Part shown: piece after piece, positions 16,804 to 58,758 of the stretch
How positions within the stretch are numbered: the stretch's first letter is position 1
How the letters are laid out: every line of letters begins with the position of its first letter
Assembly: GCA_951812305.1 (NCBI GenBank)
Contig: CATOSB010000012.1
Location: 81,591 to 145,590, forward strand
From: an uncultured Paracoccaceae bacterium
Lineage (GTDB): Bacteria > Pseudomonadota > Alphaproteobacteria > Rhodobacterales > Rhodobacteraceae
Length of the DNA: 64,000 nt
Direction: 5' to 3'
The notes under the pieces: generated by a model
The model's input: only the letters and a program-made list of their open reading frames with translations
The model's database searches: none
What the model was told of the DNA's origin: nothing
Made by a program: the position numbers and the translations under genes

Positions 16804-18404
16804 GTAACTCCCAAGCACCCCCCACGTTTGAGTGTTATTGTCAGTTTTATGGTGAGTCGAATTTGCCATTTTGCGCGTGTTTTTTTTCTTTCTTGTCTGA
16901 ATTCTGTGGCGCCGGGTTGATTTCTCTGAATCAGTGGTGGGATGGATCAGGTTGCCGCCCTTGAACAACTTCTCGCCACGGCTCTGCGTCGGATCGCTGA
17001 GCTTGAAGCTGCGTTGGCGAGCATGGCGGAAGAGATCACGGACCTGCGCCGACAGTTGGCCAAGAACAGCAGCAATAGCAGCAAGCCCCCTTCAAGTGAT
17101 GGCCTGAAGAAGCCAGCCCCGCGCAGCCTGCGTGGCAAATCCGGAAAGAAAAGTGGCGGCCAAGTTGGCCACCGGGGCGACACCCTGCGCCAGACGTCAA
17201 CACCCGACTTTGTCGAACGGCATGAGGCGACGCATTGCAGCGCCTGTCAGAGCGCCCTGACGGCGGAGATGGTGAAAGGGATCGAGAAGCGTCAGGTGTT
17301 CGACTTGCCTGCGCCACGCCTGGAGGTCACCGAGCATCAGGCGGCGGTTTATTGTTGCGACCATTGTCGAGCCACGACGACGGCTGGCTTTCCCGATGGC
17401 GTGGCCGCGCATGTGCAATATGGCACGCGCATGCGGGCAGTGGCGGTCTATTGCAATGTTCAGCAGCTGATACCCGAGGATCGGGTCTGCCAGCTTATGC
17501 GCGACCTGTTTGGGGCCACCAGCTTGTGCGCGGCCAGCGTGACCAACTGGACGCGCGGCGCGGCAAATAAGATGGGTGTCGTGGTTGAACACATTCTCGC
17601 CCGGCTTGCCGAAGGCGGCGTTCGGCATCTGGACGAGACCGGACTTCGTGTTGCCGGCAAGCTGCACTGGCTGCACACGATCTGCGATACCGCCTTCACC
17701 CATTACCGCATCAGCGCCAAACGCGGTGCTGTTCCAACCTTCCTGACCGGCGGGACGATCATTCATGATCACTGGAAACCCTACTACGCCCATATGAGCG
17801 GAGTGGACGCCCACGCCCTCTGCGGGGCGCATCACTTGCGCGAACTCAAGGCCATCGAAGAGATCGAAAAAGAGCCTTGGGCGACGGAGATGAGCGCAGT
17901 GCTTCATAGCGCCAATCAGCTCAGATGCGCGGCTCAGGATCAAGGCGAGACCGAACTCCCGGAACTGGTTCGCCAGGGTATAGTCACCAGATACATGGCG
18001 ATCCTCGCCAAGGGGCTCGCCTTCCACGAACGCCGGCCCCCGCTGGCCAAAAGCCCCGGCACCCGCGGCCGAAAAGCCAGGCGGCCAGGCCACAACCTGC
18101 TCCTCCGCCTGCGTGACTACCGCGATGACGTTTTGCGATTCATCGCCGACTTCGCGGTCCCATTCACAAACAATCAGGCCGAACAGGACCTGCGCATGAT
18201 GAAGCTGCGCATGAAAATCTCGGGCACCTTCCGCACCCTCGAGGGCGCGCGGGTCTTCGCCGACATCAGGTCCGTCATCTCGACGGCCAGAAAACACCGG
18301 TTCAACATCCTGGAAATCCTGACCCTGTCACCACCTCAGATCATCGCACGGCTCTGACGGAACAAAACCCCGCAACCCTATCGGACAGGGTGCTTGGGAG
18401 TTAC
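16804..18404 (+). mobile_element. IS66 family element, copy 1 (full length, 1601 bp)
   Basis: The element begins GTAACTCCCAAGCACCC and ends with its inverted copy GGGTGCTTGGGAGTTAC. It has a single transposase gene, as in the ISBst12-type branch of the IS66 family, without tnpA/tnpB. The 8-bp target duplication CTTCTGAC lies at 16796-16803 on the left. On the right, that duplication appears only after copy 2 (19922-19929), so copies 1 and 2 occupy one target site. Confidence 0.93.
16942..18357 (+). CDS. tnpC: IS66 family transposase (TnpC type), copy 1
   Basis: The 471-residue transposase starts with a leucine-zipper-like helix (LEQLLATALRRIAELEAAL), followed by the Ser/Pro linker NSSNSSKPPSSDG typical of IS66. 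A zinc-binding block is next (HCSACQSAL and CCDHCRATT). The DDE core has Asp in VRHLDETGLRV, Asp in IIHDHWKPYY and Glu in FTNNQAEQDLRMMKLRMKISGTF. The length matches single-ORF IS66 members. This copy carries the variant HERRPPLAK, shared with copy 3. The 366-aa antisense frame over every copy is a shadow. Confidence 0.95.
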   Translation: MDQVAALEQLLATALRRIAELEAALASMAEEITDLRRQLAKNSSNSSKPPSSDGLKKPAPRSLRGKSGKKSGGQVGHRGDTLRQTSTPDFVERHEATHCSACQSALTAEMVKGIEKRQVFDLPAPRLEVTEHQAAVYCCDHCRATTTAGFPDGVAAHVQYGTRMRAVAVYCNVQQLIPEDRVCQLMRDLFGATSLCAASVTNWTRGAANKMGVVVEHILARLAEGGVRHLDETGLRVAGKLHWLHTICDTAFTHYRISAKRGAVPTFLTGGTIIHDHWKPYYAHMSGVDAHALCGAHHLRELKAIEEIEKEPWATEMSAVLHSANQLRCAAQDQGETELPELVRQGIVTRYMAILAKGLAFHERRPPLAKSPGTRGRKARRPGHNLLLRLRDYRDDVLRFIADFAVPFTNNQAEQDLRMMKLRMKISGTFRTLEGARVFADIRSVISTARKHRFNILEILTLSPPQIIARL

Positions 18405-19921
18405 CTTTCTTGTCTGAATTCTGTGGCGCCGGGTTGATTTCTCTGAATCAGTGGTGGGATGGATCAGGTTGCCGCCCTTGAACAACTTCTCGCCACGGCT
18501 CTGCGTCGGATCGCTGAGCTTGAAGCTGCGTTGGCGAGCATGGCGGAAGAGATCACGGACCTGCGCCGACAGTTGGCCAAGAACAGCAGCAATAGCAGCA
18601 AGCCCCCTTCAAGTGATGGCCTGAAGAAGCCAGCCCCGCGCAGCCTGCGTGGCAAATCCGGAAAGAAAAGTGGCGGCCAAGTTGGCCACCGGGGCGACAC
18701 CCTGCGCCAGACGTCAACACCCGACTTTGTCGAACGGCATGAGGCGACGCATTGCAGCGCCTGTCAGAGCGCCCTGACGGCGGAGATGGTGAAAGGGATC
18801 GAGAAGCGTCAGGTGTTCGACTTGCCTGCGCCACGCCTGGAGGTCACCGAGCATCAGGCGGCGGTTTATTGTTGCGACCATTGTCGAGCCACGACGACGG
18901 CTGGCTTTCCCGATGGCGTGGCCGCGCATGTGCAATATGGCACGCGCATGCGGGCAGTGGCGGTCTATTGCAATGTTCAGCAGCTGATACCCGAGGATCG
19001 GGTCTGCCAGCTTATGCGCGACCTGTTTGGGGCCACCAGCTTGTGCGCGGCCAGCGTGACCAACTGGACGCGCGGCGCGGCAAATAAGATGGGTGTCGTG
19101 GTTGAACACATTCTCGCCCGGCTTGCCGAAGGCGGCGTTCGGCATCTGGACGAGACCGGACTTCGTGTTGCCGGCAAGCTGCACTGGCTGCACACGATCT
19201 GCGATACCGCCTTCACCCATTACCGCATCAGCGCCAAACGCGGTGCTGTTCCAACCTTCCTGACCGGCGGGACGATCATTCATGATCACTGGAAACCCTA
19301 CTACGCCCATATGAGCGGAGTGGACGCCCACGTCCTCTGCGGGGCGCATCACTTGCGCGAACTCAAGGCCATCGAAGAGATCGAAAAAGAGCCTTGGGCG
19401 ACGGAGATGAGCGCAGTGCTTCATAGCGCCAATCAGCTCAGATGCGCGGCTCAGGATCAAGGCGAGACCGAACTCCCGGAACTGGTTCGCCAGGGTATAG
19501 TCACCAGATACATGGCGATCCTCGCCAAGGGGCTCGCCTTCCACGAACGCCAGCCCCCGCTGGCCAAAAGCCCCGGCACCCGCGGCCGAAAAGCCAGGCG
19601 GCCAGGCCACAACCTGCTCCTCCGCCTGCGTGACTACCGCGATGACGTTTTGCGATTCATCGCCGACTTCGCGGTCCCATTCACAAACAATCAGGCCGAA
19701 CAGGACCTGCGCATGATGAAGCTGCGCATGAAAATCTCGGGCACCTTCCGCACCCTCGAGGGCGCGCGGGTCTTCGCCGACATCAGGTCCGTCATCTCGA
19801 CGGCCAGAAAACACCGGTTCAACATCCTGGAAATCCTGACCCTGTCACCACCTCAGATCATCGCACGGCTCTGACGGAACAAAACCCCGCAACCCTATCG
19901 GACAGGGTGCTTGGGAGTTAC
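18405..19921 (+). mobile_element. IS66 family element, copy 2 (lacks left 84 bp)
   Basis: The sequence starts abruptly at element position 85 (CTTTCTTGTCTGAATTC), immediately after the right end of copy 1. It runs to a normal right end, followed by the CTTCTGAC target duplication. The left terminal repeat is absent. The copy differs from copy 1 at marker bases (VLCGAHH; HERQPPLAK), so it is not a simple tandem duplication of copy 1. Confidence 0.92.
18459..19874 (+). CDS. tnpC: IS66 family transposase, copy 2
   Basis: This is the same 471-residue protein as copy 1, with two visible differences (Ala to Val in HVLCGAHH, and Arg to Gln in HERQPPLAK). The reading frame and DDE residues are intact. 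Only 54 bp of the native 138-bp leader remain, and the right end of copy 1 lies directly upstream, so expression would depend on a truncated leader or on read-through. Confidence 0.93.
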   Translation: MDQVAALEQLLATALRRIAELEAALASMAEEITDLRRQLAKNSSNSSKPPSSDGLKKPAPRSLRGKSGKKSGGQVGHRGDTLRQTSTPDFVERHEATHCSACQSALTAEMVKGIEKRQVFDLPAPRLEVTEHQAAVYCCDHCRATTTAGFPDGVAAHVQYGTRMRAVAVYCNVQQLIPEDRVCQLMRDLFGATSLCAASVTNWTRGAANKMGVVVEHILARLAEGGVRHLDETGLRVAGKLHWLHTICDTAFTHYRISAKRGAVPTFLTGGTIIHDHWKPYYAHMSGVDAHVLCGAHHLRELKAIEEIEKEPWATEMSAVLHSANQLRCAAQDQGETELPELVRQGIVTRYMAILAKGLAFHERQPPLAKSPGTRGRKARRPGHNLLLRLRDYRDDVLRFIADFAVPFTNNQAEQDLRMMKLRMKISGTFRTLEGARVFADIRSVISTARKHRFNILEILTLSPPQIIARL

Positions 19922-21684: not shown

Positions 21685-23285
21685 GTAACTCCCAAGCACC
21701 CTGTCCGATAGGGTTGCGGGGTTTTGTTCCGTCAGAGCCGTGCGATGATCTGAGGTGGTGACAGGGTCAGGATTTCCAGGATGTTGAACCGGTGTTTTCT
21801 GGCCGTCGAGATGACGGACCTGATGTCGGCGAAGACCCGCGCGCCCTCGAGGGTGCGGAAGGTGCCCGAGATTTTCATGCGCAGCTTCATCATGCGCAGG
21901 TCCTGTTCGGCCTGATTGTTTGTGAATGGGACCGCGAAGTCGGCGATGAATCGCAAAACGTCATCGCGGTAGTCACGCAGGCGGAGGAGCAGGTTGTGGC
22001 CTGGCCGCCTGGCTTTTCGGCCGCGGGTGCCGGGGCTTTTGGCCAGCGGGGGCCGGCGTTCGTGGAAGGCGAGCCCCTTGGCGAGGATCGCCATGTATCT
22101 GGTGACTATACCCTGGCGAACCAGTTCCGGGAGTTCGGTCTCGCCTTGATCCTGAGCCGCGCATCTGAGCTGATTGGCGCTATGAAGCACTGCGCTCATC
22201 TCCGTCGCCCAAGGCTCTTTTTCGATCTCTTCGATGGCCTTGAGTTCGCGCAAGTGATGCGCCCCGCAGAGGGCGTGGGCGTCCACTCCGCTCATATGGG
22301 CGTAGTAGGGTTTCCAGTGATCATGAATGATCGTCCCGCCGGTCAGGAAGGTTGGAACAGCACCGCGTTTGGCGCTGATGCGGTAATGGGTGAAGGCGGT
22401 ATCGCAGATCGTGTGCAGCCAGTGCAGCTTGCCGGCAACACGAAGTCCGGTCTCGTCCAGATGCCGAACGCCGCCTTCGGCAAGCCGGGCGAGAATGTGT
22501 TCAACCACGACACCCATCTTATTTGCCGCGCCGCGCGTCCAGTTGGTCACGCTGGCCGCGCACAAGCTGGTGGCCCCAAACAGGTCGCGCATAAGCTGGC
22601 AGACCCGATCCTCGGGTATCAGCTGCTGAACATTGCAATAGACCGCCACTGCCCGCATGCGCGTGCCATATTGCACATGCGCGGCCACGCCATCGGGAAA
22701 GCCAGCCGTCGTCGTGGCTCGACAATGGTCGCAACAATAAACCGCCGCCTGATGCTCGGTGACCTCCAGGCGTGGCGCAGGCAAGTCGAACACCTGACGC
22801 TTCTCGATCCCTTTCACCATCTCCGCCGTCAGGGCGCTCTGACAGGCGCTGCAATGCGTCGCCTCATGCCGTTCGACAAAGTCGGGTGTTGACGTCTGGC
22901 GCAGGGTGTCGCCCCGGTGGCCAACTTGGCCGCCACTTTTCTTTCCGGATTTGCCACGCAGGCTGCGCGGGGCTGGCTTCTTCAGGCCATCACTTGAAGG
23001 GGGCTTGCTGCTATTGCTGCTGTTCTTGGCCAACTGTCGGCGCAGGTCCGTGATCTCTTCCGCCATGCTCGCCAACGCAGCTTCAAGCTCAGCGATCCGA
23101 CGCAGAGCCGTGGCGAGAAGTTGTTCAAGGGCGGCAACCTGATCCATCCCACCACTGATTCAGAGAAATCAACCCGGCGCCACAGAATTCAGACAAGAAA
23201 GAAAAAAAACACGCGCAAAATGGCAAATTCGACTCACCATAAAACTGACAATAACACTCAAACGTGGGGGGTGCTTGGGAGTTAC
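21685..23285 (-). mobile_element. IS66 family element, copy 3 (1601 bp)
   Basis: Both ends are complete. The 8-bp target duplication TTCAAATG lies at 21677-21684 and 23286-23293. The element is inserted in the passenger gene of the IS982-like element, so it arrived after that element had moved into the AAA gene. Confidence 0.95.
21732..23147 (-). CDS. tnpC: IS66 family transposase, copy 3
   Basis: This intact 471-residue transposase carries the HERRPPLAK variant like copy 1. It reads in the opposite direction to copies 1 and 2. Confidence 0.95.
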   Translation of the reverse strand: MDQVAALEQLLATALRRIAELEAALASMAEEITDLRRQLAKNSSNSSKPPSSDGLKKPAPRSLRGKSGKKSGGQVGHRGDTLRQTSTPDFVERHEATHCSACQSALTAEMVKGIEKRQVFDLPAPRLEVTEHQAAVYCCDHCRATTTAGFPDGVAAHVQYGTRMRAVAVYCNVQQLIPEDRVCQLMRDLFGATSLCAASVTNWTRGAANKMGVVVEHILARLAEGGVRHLDETGLRVAGKLHWLHTICDTAFTHYRISAKRGAVPTFLTGGTIIHDHWKPYYAHMSGVDAHALCGAHHLRELKAIEEIEKEPWATEMSAVLHSANQLRCAAQDQGETELPELVRQGIVTRYMAILAKGLAFHERRPPLAKSPGTRGRKARRPGHNLLLRLRDYRDDVLRFIADFAVPFTNNQAEQDLRMMKLRMKISGTFRTLEGARVFADIRSVISTARKHRFNILEILTLSPPQIIARL

Positions 23286-27542: not shown

Positions 27543-29143
27543 GTAACTCCCAAGCACCCTGTCCGATAGGGTTGCGGGGTTTTGTTCCGTCAGAGCCGTG
27601 CGATGATCTGAGGTGGTGACAGGGTCAGGATTTCCAGGATGTTGAACCGGTGTTTTCTGGCCGTCGAGATGACGGACCTGATGTCGGCGAAGACCCGCGC
27701 GCCCTCGAGGGTGCGGAAGGTGCCCGAGATTTTCATGCGCAGCTTCATCATGCGCAGGTCCTGTTCGGCCTGATTGTTTGTGAATGGGACCGCGAAGTCG
27801 GCGATGAATCGCAAAACGTCATCGCGGTAGTCACGCAGGCGGAGGAGCAGGTTGTGGCCTGGCCGCCTGGCTTTTCGGCCGCGGGTGCCGGGGCTTTTGG
27901 CCAGCGGGGGCTGGCGTTCGTGGAAGGCGAGCCCCTTGGCGAGGATCGCCATGTATCTGGTGACTATACCCTGGCGAACCAGTTCCGGGAGTTCGGTCTC
28001 GCCTTGATCCTGAGCCGCGCATCTGAGCTGATTGGCGCTATGAAGCACTGCGCTCATCTCCGTCGCCCAAGGCTCTTTTTCGATCTCTTCGATGGCCTTG
28101 AGTTCGCGCAAGTGATGCGCCCCGCAGAGGGCGTGGGCGTCCACTCCGCTCATATGGGCGTAGTAGGGTTTCCAGTGATCATGAATGATCGTCCCGCCGG
28201 TCAGGAAGGTTGGAACAGCACCGCGTTTGGCGCTGATGCGGTAATGGGTGAAGGCGGTATCGCAGATCGTGTGCAGCCAGTGCAGCTTGCCGGCAACACG
28301 AAGTCCGGTCTCGTCCAGATGCCGAACGCCGCCTTCGGCAAGCCGGGCGAGAATGTGTTCAACCACGACACCCATCTTATTTGCCGCGCCGCGCGTCCAG
28401 TTGGTCACGCTGGCCGCGCACAAGCTGGTGGCCCCAAACAGGTCGCGCATAAGCTGGCAGACCCGATCCTCGGGTATCAGCTGCTGAACATTGCAATAGA
28501 CCGCCACTGCCCGCATGCGCGTGCCATATTGCACATGCGCGGCCACGCCATCGGGAAAGCCAGCCGTCGTCGTGGCTCGACAATGGTCGCAACAATAAAC
28601 CGCCGCCTGATGCTCGGTGACCTCCAGGCGTGGCGCAGGCAAGTCGAACACCTGACGCTTCTCGATCCCTTTCACCATCTCCGCCGTCAGGGCGCTCTGA
28701 CAGGCGCTGCAATGCGTCGCCTCATGCCGTTCGACAAAGTCGGGTGTTGACGTCTGGCGCAGGGTGTCGCCCCGGTGGCCAACTTGGCCGCCACTTTTCT
28801 TTCCGGATTTGCCACGCAGGCTGCGCGGGGCTGGCTTCTTCAGGCCATCACTTGAAGGGGGCTTGCTGCTATTGCTGCTGTTCTTGGCCAACTGTCGGCG
28901 CAGGTCCGTGATCTCTTCCGCCATGCTCGCCAACGCAGCTTCAAGCTCAGCGATCCGACGCAGAGCCGTGGCGAGAAGTTGTTCAAGGGCGGCAACCTGA
29001 TCCATCCCACCACTGATTCAGAGAAATCAACCCGGCGCCACAGAATTCAGACAAGAAAGAAAAAAAACACGCGCAAAATGGCAAATTCGACTCACCATAA
29101 AACTGACAATAACACTCAAACGTGGGGGGTGCTTGGGAGTTAC
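27543..29143 (-). mobile_element. IS66 family element, copy 4 (1601 bp)
   Basis: Both ends are complete. The 8-bp target duplication GATTCTGC lies at 27535-27542 and 29144-29151. The insertion lies inside the IS1111-type element, 20 bp or less from that element's right subterminal repeat. Confidence 0.95.
27590..29005 (-). CDS. tnpC: IS66 family transposase, copy 4
   Basis: This intact 471-residue transposase carries the HERQPPLAK variant, identical at the marker residues to copies 5 and 6. Confidence 0.95.
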   Translation of the reverse strand: MDQVAALEQLLATALRRIAELEAALASMAEEITDLRRQLAKNSSNSSKPPSSDGLKKPAPRSLRGKSGKKSGGQVGHRGDTLRQTSTPDFVERHEATHCSACQSALTAEMVKGIEKRQVFDLPAPRLEVTEHQAAVYCCDHCRATTTAGFPDGVAAHVQYGTRMRAVAVYCNVQQLIPEDRVCQLMRDLFGATSLCAASVTNWTRGAANKMGVVVEHILARLAEGGVRHLDETGLRVAGKLHWLHTICDTAFTHYRISAKRGAVPTFLTGGTIIHDHWKPYYAHMSGVDAHALCGAHHLRELKAIEEIEKEPWATEMSAVLHSANQLRCAAQDQGETELPELVRQGIVTRYMAILAKGLAFHERQPPLAKSPGTRGRKARRPGHNLLLRLRDYRDDVLRFIADFAVPFTNNQAEQDLRMMKLRMKISGTFRTLEGARVFADIRSVISTARKHRFNILEILTLSPPQIIARL

Positions 29144-31005: not shown

Positions 31006-32606
31006 GTAACTCCCAAGCACCCTGTCCGATAGGGTTGCGGGGTTTTGTTCCGTCAGAGCCGTGCGATGATCTGAGGTGGTGACAGGGTCAGGATTTCCAG
31101 GATGTTGAACCGGTGTTTTCTGGCCGTCGAGATGACGGACCTGATGTCGGCGAAGACCCGCGCGCCCTCGAGGGTGCGGAAGGTGCCCGAGATTTTCATG
31201 CGCAGCTTCATCATGCGCAGGTCCTGTTCGGCCTGATTGTTTGTGAATGGGACCGCGAAGTCGGCGATGAATCGCAAAACGTCATCGCGGTAGTCACGCA
31301 GGCGGAGGAGCAGGTTGTGGCCTGGCCGCCTGGCTTTTCGGCCGCGGGTGCCGGGGCTTTTGGCCAGCGGGGGCTGGCGTTCGTGGAAGGCGAGCCCCTT
31401 GGCGAGGATCGCCATGTATCTGGTGACTATACCCTGGCGAACCAGTTCCGGGAGTTCGGTCTCGCCTTGATCCTGAGCCGCGCATCTGAGCTGATTGGCG
31501 CTATGAAGCACTGCGCTCATCTCCGTCGCCCAAGGCTCTTTTTCGATCTCTTCGATGGCCTTGAGTTCGCGCAAGTGATGCGCCCCGCAGAGGGCGTGGG
31601 CGTCCACTCCGCTCATATGGGCGTAGTAGGGTTTCCAGTGATCATGAATGATCGTCCCGCCGGTCAGGAAGGTTGGAACAGCACCGCGTTTGGCGCTGAT
31701 GCGGTAATGGGTGAAGGCGGTATCGCAGATCGTGTGCAGCCAGTGCAGCTTGCCGGCAACACGAAGTCCGGTCTCGTCCAGATGCCGAACGCCGCCTTCG
31801 GCAAGCCGGGCGAGAATGTGTTCAACCACGACACCCATCTTATTTGCCGCGCCGCGCGTCCAGTTGGTCACGCTGGCCGCGCACAAGCTGGTGGCCCCAA
31901 ACAGGTCGCGCATAAGCTGGCAGACCCGATCCTCGGGTATCAGCTGCTGAACATTGCAATAGACCGCCACTGCCCGCATGCGCGTGCCATATTGCACATG
32001 CGCGGCCACGCCATCGGGAAAGCCAGCCGTCGTCGTGGCTCGACAATGGTCGCAACAATAAACCGCCGCCTGATGCTCGGTGACCTCCAGGCGTGGCGCA
32101 GGCAAGTCGAACACCTGACGCTTCTCGATCCCTTTCACCATCTCCGCCGTCAGGGCGCTCTGACAGGCGCTGCAATGCGTCGCCTCATGCCGTTCGACAA
32201 AGTCGGGTGTTGACGTCTGGCGCAGGGTGTCGCCCCGGTGGCCAACTTGGCCGCCACTTTTCTTTCCGGATTTGCCACGCAGGCTGCGCGGGGCTGGCTT
32301 CTTCAGGCCATCACTTGAAGGGGGCTTGCTGCTATTGCTGCTGTTCTTGGCCAACTGTCGGCGCAGGTCCGTGATCTCTTCCGCCATGCTCGCCAACGCA
32401 GCTTCAAGCTCAGCGATCCGACGCAGAGCCGTGGCGAGAAGTTGTTCAAGGGCGGCAACCTGATCCATCCCACCACTGATTCAGAGAAATCAACCCGGCG
32501 CCACAGAATTCAGACAAGAAAGAAAAAAAACACGCGCAAAATGGCAAATTCGACTCACCATAAAACTGACAATAACACTCAAACGTGGGGGGTGCTTGGG
32601 AGTTAC
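31006..32606 (-). mobile_element. IS66 family element, copy 5 (1601 bp)
   Basis: Both ends are complete. The 8-bp target duplication AGAAAAAA lies at 30998-31005 and 32607-32614. The element is inserted after codon 30 of the AGCS symporter gene, in the same orientation as that gene. Confidence 0.95.
31053..32468 (-). CDS. tnpC: IS66 family transposase, copy 5
   Basis: This intact 471-residue transposase shows no visible protein difference from copy 4. Confidence 0.95.
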   Translation of the reverse strand: MDQVAALEQLLATALRRIAELEAALASMAEEITDLRRQLAKNSSNSSKPPSSDGLKKPAPRSLRGKSGKKSGGQVGHRGDTLRQTSTPDFVERHEATHCSACQSALTAEMVKGIEKRQVFDLPAPRLEVTEHQAAVYCCDHCRATTTAGFPDGVAAHVQYGTRMRAVAVYCNVQQLIPEDRVCQLMRDLFGATSLCAASVTNWTRGAANKMGVVVEHILARLAEGGVRHLDETGLRVAGKLHWLHTICDTAFTHYRISAKRGAVPTFLTGGTIIHDHWKPYYAHMSGVDAHALCGAHHLRELKAIEEIEKEPWATEMSAVLHSANQLRCAAQDQGETELPELVRQGIVTRYMAILAKGLAFHERQPPLAKSPGTRGRKARRPGHNLLLRLRDYRDDVLRFIADFAVPFTNNQAEQDLRMMKLRMKISGTFRTLEGARVFADIRSVISTARKHRFNILEILTLSPPQIIARL

Positions 32607-35685: not shown

Positions 35686-36006
35686 TTTAATCCAGCGGGA
35701 ACTCCCCGCGTGTCAGGGCAATCGATTGAATGGAAAAAATGCTGCAAAAGAGCCATATGACGTTCGCGCATCCTGCACTCGGGGCATCAAAAGGCGTATT
35801 CAGGGCAATTCCGGGAGGACACGTGCAACTTTGTAGGGTTTTTAGGAGTCACGTTGAACGCTTGAATTGTTCAGTCGATTGCCCTACCCCGCGTGTAAGC
35901 GCGGGGATGATAGCCCTTCCATTGTCTTCGGGCTATCGTCTGCAGAATGCGGCTGCGAAAATCGTCCCACAGCGTTTACAAAGGATTTTTTGTGTCCACC
36001 GTTGGG
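35686..36006 (+). repeat. repeat R2, copy B, interrupted by MITE copy 3
   Basis: After removal of the 173-bp MITE and one 10-bp duplication, this 137-bp sequence is nearly identical to the reverse complement of 1594-1730. Copy A therefore serves as the empty site proving the MITE insertion. It includes the hairpin CCCCGCGTGTAAGCGCGGGG, formed partly by the duplicated bases. Confidence 0.75.
35714..35886 (+). mobile_element. 173-bp MITE, copy 3
   Basis: It starts CAGGGCAATCGATTGAATGG and ends CAGTCGATTGCCCTA (last base changed from G). The 10-bp target duplication CCCCGCGTGT lies at 35704-35713 and 35887-35896. Orientation is opposite to copies 1 and 2. It is slightly more diverged than they are from each other. 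Confidence 0.92.
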
Positions 36007-36164
36007 ATCAACGAGCAAACGATACGGAATTACGTCCGATGGCAGGGCCAAGAAGATAATGGACAAGCCGAGCTTGACCTTTGAAAGAACCACGGGTGTA
36101 AGCCCGTGGGTATCTATAGCCCCCGTCTTCAGACGGGCTCGCTTTAGCGCGAACGAATCGTGTT

Positions 36165-36234
36165 ATGTTCAGTCCTTCCCGAAAATGAGCCGCCCGGCGA
36201 GGGCACAGGCTCATTTTCGGGAAGGACTGAACAT
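36165..36234 (+). promoter_or_regulatory. 26-bp perfect hairpin covering the tnpA ribosome site
   Basis: Arms 36165-36190 and 36209-36234 are perfect inverse copies with an 18-nt loop. The right arm, GCTCATTTTCGGGAAGGA and onward, contains the Shine-Dalgarno-like GGAAGGA and runs to within the ATG at 36233-36235. In an mRNA started upstream, the ribosome site would be buried. IS200 elements are known to repress transposase translation with such a stem-loop. Confidence 0.8.
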
Positions 36235-36628
36235 GCAATATGACACGGGCAAACACTGCGTCTACTACCACCGCTACCACCTGGTCTGGTCGACAAAATA
36301 CCGCTACAAGGTCCTGGTGGGAGAGCTTGGGTTGCGCGTGCGCGACATCTGCCGCCATGTGTGCGGAGAGAACGGCGTGGACATCATCCACGGGGTAGTC
36401 TCCCGCGACCATGTCCATATGTTTGTCTCGGTTCCGCCAAAGCTCGCAATCTCCGACCTGGTTCGGAAGATGAAGGGTCGCTCGTCTTATCGGATACAAC
36501 GAGAATTCCCGCAGATCAGGAAGCGCTGCCGGGGGTGCCGCTTTTGGGGAGGAGGCTATTTCTCGACCACCAACGGTGCCATCACAGAGGACCTGGTACT
36601 TCAGTACCTGGATCAGCACACCCCTTGA
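36233..36628 (+). CDS. tnpA: IS200 family transposase TnpA
   Basis: The 131-residue Y1 HUH enzyme starts MQYDTGKHCVYYHRYHLVWSTKYRYKVL. The HUH motif is in VVSRDHVHMFVSVPP and the C-terminal helix GGGYFSTTNGAITEDLVLQYL follows. The usual length is 130-150, so it appears complete. It transposes single-stranded DNA by recognising the terminal hairpins. Its start codon lies at the foot of a 26-bp hairpin. Confidence 0.9.
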   Translation: MQYDTGKHCVYYHRYHLVWSTKYRYKVLVGELGLRVRDICRHVCGENGVDIIHGVVSRDHVHMFVSVPPKLAISDLVRKMKGRSSYRIQREFPQIRKRCRGCRFWGGGYFSTTNGAITEDLVLQYLDQHTP

Positions 36629-38118: not shown

Positions 38119-38417
38119 TTCCGGCCCCGGTCCTGATTGCAGATGTCGTCAAGGACTCCGAAATTCCCGAGGACAATGATGTGACCGGGGAGGCCCTGGA
38201 ACAGATACTCACCTGCGACCCCGGAGCGTTTGTCATCGGGAGTGATTCAAAATCCGGTGATAAAACAGACCAGCGCATTGCCAATCCTTGCAATATTGGC
38301 CCCGATCATGGTGAAGGACAATCATGTTCATCATGTCATTGACCTGCGCGCTGGCGGGCAAAATGTAAATTCCGGTACGGGCCGGACGACATCGTATTAC
38401 TTGGGAAATGTCGGTTA

Positions 38418-38556
38418 GGAGACACGCAAGAATAAGTGCTACGTTTGGTGGCGGCGGCGTGGTGTGATTGTGTAGTTCCATTCTGGGTGGAATGCATTCC
38501 CTTCGATGACGAGGCTATCCATTTCAGCTTTGGTAACCTTAACACCCTTCTCGTAA
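38418..38556 (-). mobile_element. ISAzo13 element, terminal remnant (139 bp)
   Basis: This matches the left end of the complete element at 57420 (GGAGACACGCAAGAATAAGT onward), including the last 25 or so transposase codons, with a few base differences. It breaks off after CTTCTCGTAA. Confidence 0.85.
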
Positions 38557-38653
38557 CAGAAAGCCCGGCAAGAGGTGTCACAGGCCTTGTTGCGCGCCGA
38601 CTGCTTCCCGGCGGGGATGGAGCTGTTCCCGGCAGCGGATGAGGAGCAGCTCC
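38557..38653 (+). pseudogene. DUF4062-domain gene scrap
   Basis: One frame reads KARQEVSQALLRADCFPAGMELF followed by PAADEEQ. This is the strongly conserved 'ALL..DC.PAGMELFPA.DEEQ' block of DUF4062 proteins, which are often found in defence-associated or NTPase-fused proteins. The fragment is about 30 residues and ends in the cobO-like scrap at a GAGCAGCTCC joint. Confidence 0.55.
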
Positions 38654-38740
38654 ATTTCAGTCACTAGATCGGCGATCTCGATCAGGCCCTCCTTGGCATT
38701 GCGGTTCGCCCGAACAGCACCGCAGGTGCCGGGCGAGCGC
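38647..38740 (-). pseudogene. diverged cobO 3' scrap
   Basis: The minus-strand frame reads NAKEGLIEIADLVTEMEL, matching RNAKEELIEIADLVTEMEL of the complete cobO 300 bp away. The DNA similarity is clear but imperfect, so the scrap comes from a different cobO allele. It marks the joint between accessory DNA and the chromosomal cobalamin genes. Confidence 0.65.
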
Positions 38741-38908
38741 CTGCCCGTCCCGGCGGGCTGGCGCTTTGGAGAGGTTGCGCACCTAATTGAGTTAGTATGT
38801 TGGCGGCGGGATAAAGTGTGTCACACGCGCGTTGCAGCGCCACCCCACCGGCAGGCGCGCCCTTTGACTTGAAGTTAGTTTGAGGTCCCGGATCGGGACT
38901 GCGATGCG

Positions 38909-39517
38909 CTAAAACTCCACCCCAATCTGCGCCTTAACGCCCGACCGGAACGGGTGTTTGATCAGCTCCATTTCGGTCACCAGATCGGCGATCTCGATCA
39001 GTTCTTCCTTTGCGTTTCGACCCGTTAGCACGACGTGGGTCATGGGGGGTTTTTCGGTCGCGAGGAACTCCACGACCTCTGCGATGTCGATATAGTCATA
39101 GCGCAGGGCGATGTTGATCTCATCCAGCAGGACCATGTGGTTGGCCGGATCGCGGATCAATTCCTTGGCCTTTTCCCACGCGGCCTGCGCCATTTCGGTG
39201 TCGCGAGTTTTGTCCTGGGTTTCCCAGGTAAAGCCCTCGCCCATCGTGTGAAAGGCGCAGAGGTCGGTGAACCGGTCGAGGATCATGTCGCGTTCACCCG
39301 TCGACATGCCGCCCTTGATGAACTGCACCACGGCGCATTGGCGGCCATGGGCGATGTGGCGGAAGATCATGCCAAAAGCGGCGGTGGACTTGCCCTTGCC
39401 CTTGCCGGTGTGGACGATGATCAGGCCCTTTTCCTCGGTCTTGGTCGCCATGATCTTGTCACGCGCGGCCTTTTTCTTGGCCATCTTGGTGGCGTGGCGG
39501 TCGGTGTCGTCGGTCAT
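38909..39517 (-). CDS. cobO: cob(I)yrinic acid a,c-diamide adenosyltransferase
   Basis: The ATG at 39517 (MTDDTDRHATKM) is chosen; the ORF-track extension overlaps the divergent GFA gene. The 202-residue protein has the P-loop HTGKGKGKSTAAFG (about residues 34-47), VVQFIKGGMSTGE, WETQDKTRD and LLDEINIALRYDYI, all CobO/CobA-type hallmarks. It adds the adenosyl group from ATP to cobalt in cobalamin synthesis or salvage. It lies close to cobN and cobW, on the same strand but separated by two plus-strand genes. The 3' end faces the accessory region. Confidence 0.95.
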   Translation of the reverse strand: MTDDTDRHATKMAKKKAARDKIMATKTEEKGLIIVHTGKGKGKSTAAFGMIFRHIAHGRQCAVVQFIKGGMSTGERDMILDRFTDLCAFHTMGEGFTWETQDKTRDTEMAQAAWEKAKELIRDPANHMVLLDEINIALRYDYIDIAEVVEFLATEKPPMTHVVLTGRNAKEELIEIADLVTEMELIKHPFRSGVKAQIGVEF

Positions 39518-44340: not shown

Positions 44341-44446
44341 CAGGCCACTTCAAATTGCGCTGCGCGCAATCCGACCGGTGCGAGGGGGGCCAGCCCCCCT
44401 CGCGCTCCCCCCGGCATATTTGGAACGAGAAGAAGTTGTTGGCAGG

Positions 44447-57406: not shown

Positions 57407-57419
57407 CGCCACTCCCTAA

Positions 57420-58758
57420 GGAGACACGCAAGAATAAGTACTACGTTTGGTGGCGGCGGCGTGGTGTGATTGTGTAGTTCCATTCTGGGTGGAATGCATT
57501 CCCTTCGATGACGAGGCTATCCATTTCAGCTTTGGTGACCTTAACACCCTTCTCGTAAATACTTTCGTCAAGTGCGCATTCTACTTTCAGCCCAGCGTTC
57601 GTCGTCGTCGCCCCGATCAACTCGACGACTGCCATACGGCTGGACAGCGGCCGTCCGCGCCAGTTCTGTGTGATGTGGCAAAACATCCGATGCTCGATGA
57701 GGTTCCACTTGGATGTGCCGGGCGGATAGTGATGGACGTGCAAGACAAGGTCGGTTTCGTCAGCAAACCTCTGCAGCTCTACCTTCCATAACCGGACGCG
57801 CGCACCGTTCGATCCGCCGCAGTCAGCAGTTATTGTCAGCTCGCGCATGCCAGGATGGCGCTTCTGACCCATGCGCTTCCGCCAGGTACGGATAGAGTTG
57901 ACGGCGAATGAAGCAGTGTCAGCGGTGACGCCCACGCTAACCCAGCCAGTATTGGTGCCAACGTCGTAGACACCGTAGGGCGCCACCTTGCCGAGCTCCT
58001 TGTCGGGGAAATCATGTATGTTAACGCAGCGGGGGTCGCCTTTTGGCCGGTAGTCGCTGCCATCGTTGCGGTAGTTTCCGATCAACTCCTTCTTTTTGGT
58101 GTCGACCGAGATGACAGGCTGCCCAGCCGCCTGCGCGTCCAATACCCTGGCGTTAATATGCTCAAACTGCGCGTCGCGATCAGGGTGGTTGGTGCCATCG
58201 TGCGTTTTGCGATTGACCTGCCGCGAATATTCCAACTTTGTTTCCAGCAACCTGGCGACAGTATTGGCACATATAGTATGGCCTGCAGCACACAGTGCCG
58301 CTGCCAGCTTTGCCGGGCTCTTCGACACCCATTTAAGCGGACGTATAGGATCACCCATCGTCGCTGGCTCGGCGAGACGCTGCAAGTCGGACACCAGCGT
58401 CGTATCAAGGTCGGCGACCTCGCGTCGCCCTCCACCCTTGCGGCGCACGCGGCCATTGCCTGGACCTGGAGTATCAAGATCATTGATGCCTCGCCCGATG
58501 GTGGAACGTGCGAGGCCAGTGATCTCCGCAACTGCCGCAAGACCGCCACGCCCCGCCGCTCGGGCTTCTGCGGCAGCAAACAAACGCCGACCTCGTTCGC
58601 CAAGCTTCGAACCAAAAACTTCCCATCGCTCCTGAATTTGTTCTCGCTCTACCATGATTATCGATTACCATATTGAGAACGGCATGAGAATCGTGCGGAC
58701 CAGAGTCAAACCGTCGCAGCGGCAAAGGTTTGCGATTCACTTATTGTTGCGTGTCTCC
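57420..58758 (-). mobile_element. ISAzo13 family element (1339 bp)
   Basis: The inverted ends are GGAGACACGCAAGAATAAGT and GGAGACACGCAACAATAAGT. A 3-bp duplication TAA lies at 57417-57419 and 58759-58761. It carries one transposase gene reading toward the CPBP gene. A terminal remnant of the same element lies at 38418-38556. Confidence 0.9.
57441..58655 (-). CDS. ISAzo13 family transposase
   Basis: The 404-residue protein has an N-terminal helix-turn-helix (GLAAVAEITGLARSTIGRGI). The catalytic block is QPVISVDTKKKELIGNYRN (first Asp), then LTITADCGGSNGARVRLWK (second Asp) and PPGTSKWNLIEHRMFCHIT (Glu). VKVTKAEMDSL and HPEWNYTITPR near the end are ISAzo13 features. It appears intact. Confidence 0.92.
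   Translation of the reverse strand: MVEREQIQERWEVFGSKLGERGRRLFAAAEARAAGRGGLAAVAEITGLARSTIGRGINDLDTPGPGNGRVRRKGGGRREVADLDTTLVSDLQRLAEPATMGDPIRPLKWVSKSPAKLAAALCAAGHTICANTVARLLETKLEYSRQVNRKTHDGTNHPDRDAQFEHINARVLDAQAAGQPVISVDTKKKELIGNYRNDGSDYRPKGDPRCVNIHDFPDKELGKVAPYGVYDVGTNTGWVSVGVTADTASFAVNSIRTWRKRMGQKRHPGMRELTITADCGGSNGARVRLWKVELQRFADETDLVLHVHHYPPGTSKWNLIEHRMFCHITQNWRGRPLSSRMAVVELIGATTTNAGLKVECALDESIYEKGVKVTKAEMDSLVIEGNAFHPEWNYTITPRRRHQT

What the first reader, a model, noticed from the sequence alone, without database searches (positions are those of the whole stretch)
38418..38908. Patchwork joint at the boundary of accessory DNA and cobalamin genes
In about 320 bp there is an ISAzo13 end, a DUF4062 scrap and a diverged cobO scrap joined at a short shared sequence (GAGCAGCTCC). 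The scrap duplicates the end of the nearby complete cobO, suggesting that the accessory region arrived by recombination at cobO from another strain.
Basis: partly seen in the sequence, partly recalled or inferred. Interest (0 to 1): 0.5.

Follow-up and report, generated by a model that had tools for sequence, protein, structure and literature searches.

The report
Scar of a cobO-docked phage-defence gene
Next to a vitamin B12 gene (cobO) lies a dead scrap of a phage-defence gene fused to a scrap of a foreign cobO; the same kind of defence gene sits tail-to-tail with cobO in five related genera, so the scar marks a spot where such genes have repeatedly docked.

Summary
The patchwork is real. 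Seven of the eight cobO-scrap differences from the resident gene are at third codon positions, so the scrap diverged as a working cobO: it comes from another lineage, not from local decay. The DUF4062/cobO pairing is not accidental: in five other genera a DUF4062 gene lies tail-to-tail on the intact cobO (three with overlapping stops), and the only same-genus genome held carries two DUF4062 genes plus a cobO 3' scrap at hisB. DUF4062 is the NADase domain of the antiphage system Swarozyc. In the cobO-linked genes it is 93-98% identical across genera (73-76% in one), whereas everything after it falls to 21-33%: a constant effector with a swapped sensor. The window joint is the collapsed remnant of such a gene plus its cobO tail. 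That the whole accessory region entered this way is not shown. The scar is dead; the cobO-docked locus it reveals is the interesting part.

The parts
38414..38556 (.). 143-bp terminal fragment of an ISAzo13-family IS (TIR TAGGAGACACGCAA...), IS end at 38414, broken internally at 38556
38557..38649 (+). fragment of a DUF4062 (Swarozyc-type TIR-like NADase) gene, about codons 17-47; lacks start, catalytic Glu motif and sensor part
   Evidence: 82-84% DNA identity to DUF4062 genes of G078, G089, G152, G001; 31/34 aa; Pfam DUF4062 E=0.0017
38644..38653 (.). joint GAGCAGCTCC; strict overlap of the two parents is CAG (38647-38649), CAGYTC with one mismatch
38647..38704 (-). cobO' scrap: internal piece near the 3' end of a diverged cobO, convergent with the DUF4062 fragment
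   Evidence: 85% to own cobO 38960-39019; differences concentrated at third codon positions
38705..38863 (.). dispersed palindromic (REP/MITE-like) repeat, at least 21 copies in the genome
38909..39598 (-). intact cobO, ATP:corrinoid adenosyltransferase
   Evidence: PF02572 E=7e-65; one match in own genome
57419..58758 (+). second, near-complete copy of the same ISAzo13-family IS (99%)

Best explanation
The joint is the collapsed remnant of a DUF4062 (Swarozyc-type) antiphage gene that lay tail-to-tail against a cobO 3' end. Shown: the pieces, their order and orientation, and the same DUF4062 -> <- cobO pairing in five other genera and, with a cobO scrap, at hisB in the same genus. Inferred: DNA carrying DUF4062 and the 3' part of a foreign cobO joined this chromosome at cobO by recombination anchored in cobO homology on one side and illegitimate on the other, leaving a duplicated cobO piece (either the incoming or the displaced resident end). 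A deletion then fused DUF4062 codon ~47 to cobO' at a 3-6 nt overlap, removing the catalytic and sensor parts and the last 17 cobO codons; a second break joined an IS fragment to DUF4062 codon ~17. The remnant makes no working protein; the resident cobO stays intact.
For: Scrap identities. Same order and orientation elsewhere: G152 (L262), G089 (L263), G078 (L264), G397 (L265) and G485 (L301), with overlapping stops in G078, G397 and G485. G001: DUF4062-TIR, DUF4062 and a cobO 3' scrap with stop codon at hisB. Third-position bias: window scrap 7 of 8, G001 scrap 12 of 16 against window cobO and 10 of 15 against its own cobO. Insertion seen against empty sites: cobO is followed within 6-45 bp by cobQ in L040, L046, L048, L051, L053, L054, L111, while in G078 DUF4062 lies between them. 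All the tested DUF4062 N-domains match the solved KpSwz protein, E 1e-49 to 3e-40.
Against: Only 57-60 bp of cobO' and about 93 bp of DUF4062 remain, so no donor can be named (best cobO matches 88-91% in several genera). The cobO' scrap touches a dispersed repeat, so an intragenomic rearrangement through repeats could have contributed. No chimeric breakpoint was found in the resident cobO genes tested. No sister strain of this species was available. The one-sided-homology route is inferred from end products only.
Confidence: 0.72

Rival explanations
1. Local origin: the resident cobO end was duplicated in place (for example through repeats or replication slippage) and the duplicate decayed, and an unrelated DUF4062 fragment landed beside it by chance.
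For: Scrap and resident are direct repeats about 316 bp apart with a repeat element between them.
Against: Seven of eight differences are at third codon positions, not expected of a decaying copy; DUF4062 next to cobO recurs in five genera and with a cobO scrap in a sixth genome.
Confidence: 0.1
2. Site-specific integration: the cobO 3' end is an attachment site of an integrase-borne island and the scrap is its second attachment copy.
For: Direct repeats of the cobO 3' region in the window; a second 15-17 bp cobO-end-like sequence (GGTGTGGAGTTTTGATC) 325 bp from the scrap in G001.
Against: The window scrap lacks the last 17 codons and the stop, where a core site would lie; no integrase was found among the neighbours examined at the DUF4062-cobO pairs or in the G001 locus; what lies between the two cobO copies is only a repeat and about 45 bp.
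Confidence: 0.07
3. Old vertical arrangement: DUF4062-cobO was ancestral to the family and the window shows in-place erosion, with the scrap as a displaced resident end rather than an import.
For: The pairing occurs in several genera with fixed geometry; third-position divergence of DUF4062 roughly tracks that of cobO in some pairs.
Against: None of the 80 named cobO loci fetched has it (with 6-kb flanks where held); in G078 cobO is only 61-68% identical to the others while its DUF4062 N-domain is 93% identical to four of them; a genus-mate of G152 lacks the gene.
Confidence: 0.11

Closest known systems
Swarozyc (DUF4062 TIR-like NADase antiphage system; PMC13174449, PDB 10wc)
   Same: DUF4062 domain with aligned active-site motif in the related genes; modular N-terminal effector plus C-terminal auxiliary part; spread by horizontal transfer
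   Different: The window holds only a dead 31-codon fragment; related genes are docked at cobO, keep a near-constant NADase domain and carry C-terminal parts with no detectable sequence match to the KpSwz auxiliary domain
Displacement by homology-facilitated illegitimate recombination (Vibrio T6SS effector-immunity arrays, PMC5361080; C-terminal displacement in rhs loci cited there)
   Same: Constant part anchored by homology, variable part exchanged, orphan 3' pieces left behind
   Different: Here the anchor would be a housekeeping gene (cobO) next to a defence gene, and the orphan piece is a cobO fragment; the mechanism is inferred, not observed
ISAzo13-family insertion sequences (PF07592)
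   Same: Transposase family and terminal inverted repeats of the intact genomic copies
   Different: Only 143 bp of one end remain at the joint
REP/BIME or MITE-type dispersed repeats
   Same: Short, palindromic, many diverged copies
   Different: No family assigned here; no mobilising transposase tested

Membership tests
Swarozyc (DUF4062 antiphage gene) | DUF4062 TIR-like domain | tested here: met
   Window fragment: Pfam E=0.0017, partial (positions 12-44 of 82), below the curated cut-off; related full genes match KpSwz
Swarozyc (DUF4062 antiphage gene) | Catalytic Glu | tested here: not met
   The window fragment ends before the TEMEYDYA motif; relatives keep it. Equating this Glu with E97 of KpSwz is my own residue count.
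Swarozyc (DUF4062 antiphage gene) | C-terminal auxiliary (sensor) domain | tested here: not met
   Absent from the window; present but divergent in relatives
Swarozyc (DUF4062 antiphage gene) | NADase activity and phage protection | not testable with these tools
   needs experiment
ISAzo13 IS family | PF07592 transposase and terminal inverted repeats in full copies | tested here: met
Homology-facilitated illegitimate recombination scar | one homologous and one non-homologous end, with a duplicated or displaced resident end | tested here: inconclusive
   duplicated cobO piece present; no chimeric cobO detected
Integrase attachment-site duplication | duplicated gene end containing the core site, with a recombinase nearby | tested here: not met
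   the scrap lacks the gene end; no integrase found among examined neighbours
REP/MITE repeat | many palindromic copies | tested here: met
   intergenic position of each copy not checked

The most novel reading that the evidence does not exclude
In this family the 3' end of cobO is a docking site for a diversifying phage-sensing gene: the NADase domain and the cobO end act as constant bookends between which the sensor domain is exchanged by recombination across genera, and stray cobO 3' fragments (this window, G001) are the by-products of those exchanges.
Probability: 0.3. Interest if true: 0.65.

Novelty: new variant of a known kind. Interest (0 to 1): 0.42.

Why it matters
The scar itself is inert, but it points to a fixed chromosomal address for Swarozyc-type genes whose effector domain is nearly constant across genera while the part expected to recognise phage is replaced. 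If bookend exchange is right, it gives a defined place to watch sensor swapping in an innate immune gene, and cobO 3' scraps become markers of past exchanges.

Tried and rejected
Chimeric cobO in G078 (resident 3' end imported with DUF4062): rejected, its last 45 codons are closest to its own clade (88-89%). The joint as a plain IS insertion into DUF4062: rejected, the IS is broken internally at the DUF4062 side. Naming the donor from the scrap: not possible with 57 bp. An Rfam RNA at the joint: none. Plasmid or phage carriers of the close DUF4062 clade: plasmid hits are all below 60% identity and phage hits 27%; IMG/VR hits are 39-58% with no cobO found. PADLOC gave only weak TIR-type hits. 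The idea that the dispersed repeats beside the two cobO scraps (window and G001) are one family: rejected, they differ. Whether cobO downstream DNA is a general defence hotspot: mostly not; the commonest neighbour among 56 scanned ORFs is a thiamine-diphosphate enzyme (about 14).

Full report
What is there. The window is G000:C12:81591-145590, from a 7.2-Mb alphaproteobacterial genome. The named cobO relatives fetched are mostly Rhodobacteraceae-type genera such as Roseovarius, Amylibacter and Octadecabacter. Reading left to right, 38414-38556 is the first 143 bp of an IS found in 18 other places at 98-99%. Its intact copies are about 1345 bp, encode a PF07592 (ISAZ013) transposase, end in TAGGAGACACGCAA/TTGCGTGTCTCC, and one lies at 57419-58758 of the window. 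The terminus is on the left; the right edge at 38556 is an internal break. From 38557 the sequence reads in frame as DUF4062 (QKARQEVSQALLRADCFPAGMELFPAADEEQ), 31/34 aa identical to the G001 protein over 38557-38658. At CAG (38647-38649) it passes into cobO read on the minus strand, up to about 38704. A dispersed palindromic repeat follows to about 38863, then about 45 bp, then the stop of intact cobO at 38909.

The cobO scrap is of foreign descent. Between 38960 and 39019 nine bases differ from the scrap; one of them lies inside the joint, and of the other eight, seven are at third codon positions. The whole set of nine gives binomial P = 0.008; without the joint base my own calculation gives about 0.003. 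A decaying local copy would not show this. The G001 scrap shows the same (12 of 16 at third positions against window cobO). Sixty bases are too few to name the donor. The data do not decide whether the scrap is the incoming end or a displaced former resident end.

DUF4062 belongs at cobO. A search of 397 genomes of the family with the G001 DUF4062-TIR protein found 10 with a match. Those with N-domains at least 93% alike are G001, G078, G089, G152 and G397. In G078, G089, G152 and G397 the gene lies directly downstream of intact cobO in convergent orientation. A further genome, G485, found in an order-level search with N-domain identity 73%, has the same arrangement. In G078, G397 and G485 the two stop codons overlap. 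In G089 a repeat of the same family as the window's lies between them, but this is the only such case among 90 cobO loci other than the window. In G001 the two DUF4062 genes and a cobO 3' scrap sit beside lin0512/hisB-like genes, away from that genome's intact cobO. Gene names there beyond the Pfam hits are my reading of the sequence. The more distant DUF4062 genes (53-61% N-domain, and viral contigs) have no cobO in the flanks fetched. Comparison sites without the gene exist: cobO runs straight into cobQ in several genomes, and G078 has DUF4062 inserted antisense between them. G089's DUF4062 lies between cobO and a thiamine-diphosphate enzyme gene, a common cobO neighbour.

Constant effector, exchanged remainder. 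Over the first 103 residues the proteins of G078, G089, G152, G397 and G001 are 93-98% identical (G485 73-76% to these), while the rest is 21-33%. The break is sharp, just after RLLHKDP. A bioRxiv preprint held in PMC (PMC13174449) shows DUF4062 to be a TIR-like NADase, names the antiphage system Swarozyc, and shows that its auxiliary C-terminal domain binds the phage portal. The N-domains here match that solved protein (PDB 10wc) with E from 1e-49 to 3e-40, the match ending at query residue 165-216 depending on the protein. Function of the genes found here is inferred from this homology.

How the joint probably formed. A DUF4062 -> <- cobO pair, as in the other genera, existed at this cobO or came in with foreign DNA. 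One-sided homologous joining at cobO, with an illegitimate second end, would leave a duplicated cobO piece; PMC5361080 proposes such displacement for Vibrio effector-immunity arrays and cites it for rhs loci. A deletion then fused DUF4062 and cobO' at a 3-6 nt overlap, and a second break at the IS removed the gene's start. The order of these steps is not determined.

Limits. The collections hold one genome per species, no sister strain was available, and the genome has 5.6% estimated contamination, though the joint lies inside a 378-kb contig. Linkage counts are not independent, because shared descent and transfer both contribute.

Noticed in passing
window 38705-38863; L009-L028: Dispersed palindromic repeat of about 150-160 bp: at least 21 copies in the genome (about 200 first-look candidates) and matches in many other genera of the family; the window copy is closer to copies in G010, G381 and G376 (79-80%) than to own-genome copies (76%).
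   Followed up: partly
L079:7390-7523 (G001) and L181-L196: A different dispersed repeat with dozens of copies in G001, one of which abuts the cobO scrap there.
   Followed up: partly
L079:7312-7326: A second short cobO-end-like sequence (GGTGTGGAGTTTTGATC) about 325 bp before the cobO scrap's end in G001; real relic or chance not settled.
   Followed up: no
L079:7621-8154: The G001 DUF4062 gene next to the scrap runs through the antisense of the cobO 3' end and takes its stop codon there.
   Followed up: partly
L080:6606-9161: Downstream of intact cobO in G001 is a bacterial Pnkp-type RNA-repair gene (PNKP_ligase, AAA_33, Metallophos).
   Followed up: partly
window 16942-18357, 18459-19874, 21732-23147, 27590-29005, 31053-32468: Five ORFs of exactly 471 aa, apparently copies of one IS66-type transposase (only the first was tested against Pfam).
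   Followed up: partly
window 44349-44435 and L079:10846-10933: 82% identical 89-bp stretch upstream of cobN in the window and beyond hisB in G001; probably an intergenic repeat.
   Followed up: no
window 35867-36625: Y1 (IS200-like) transposase ORF; not tested as a partner of the palindromic repeat.
   Followed up: no
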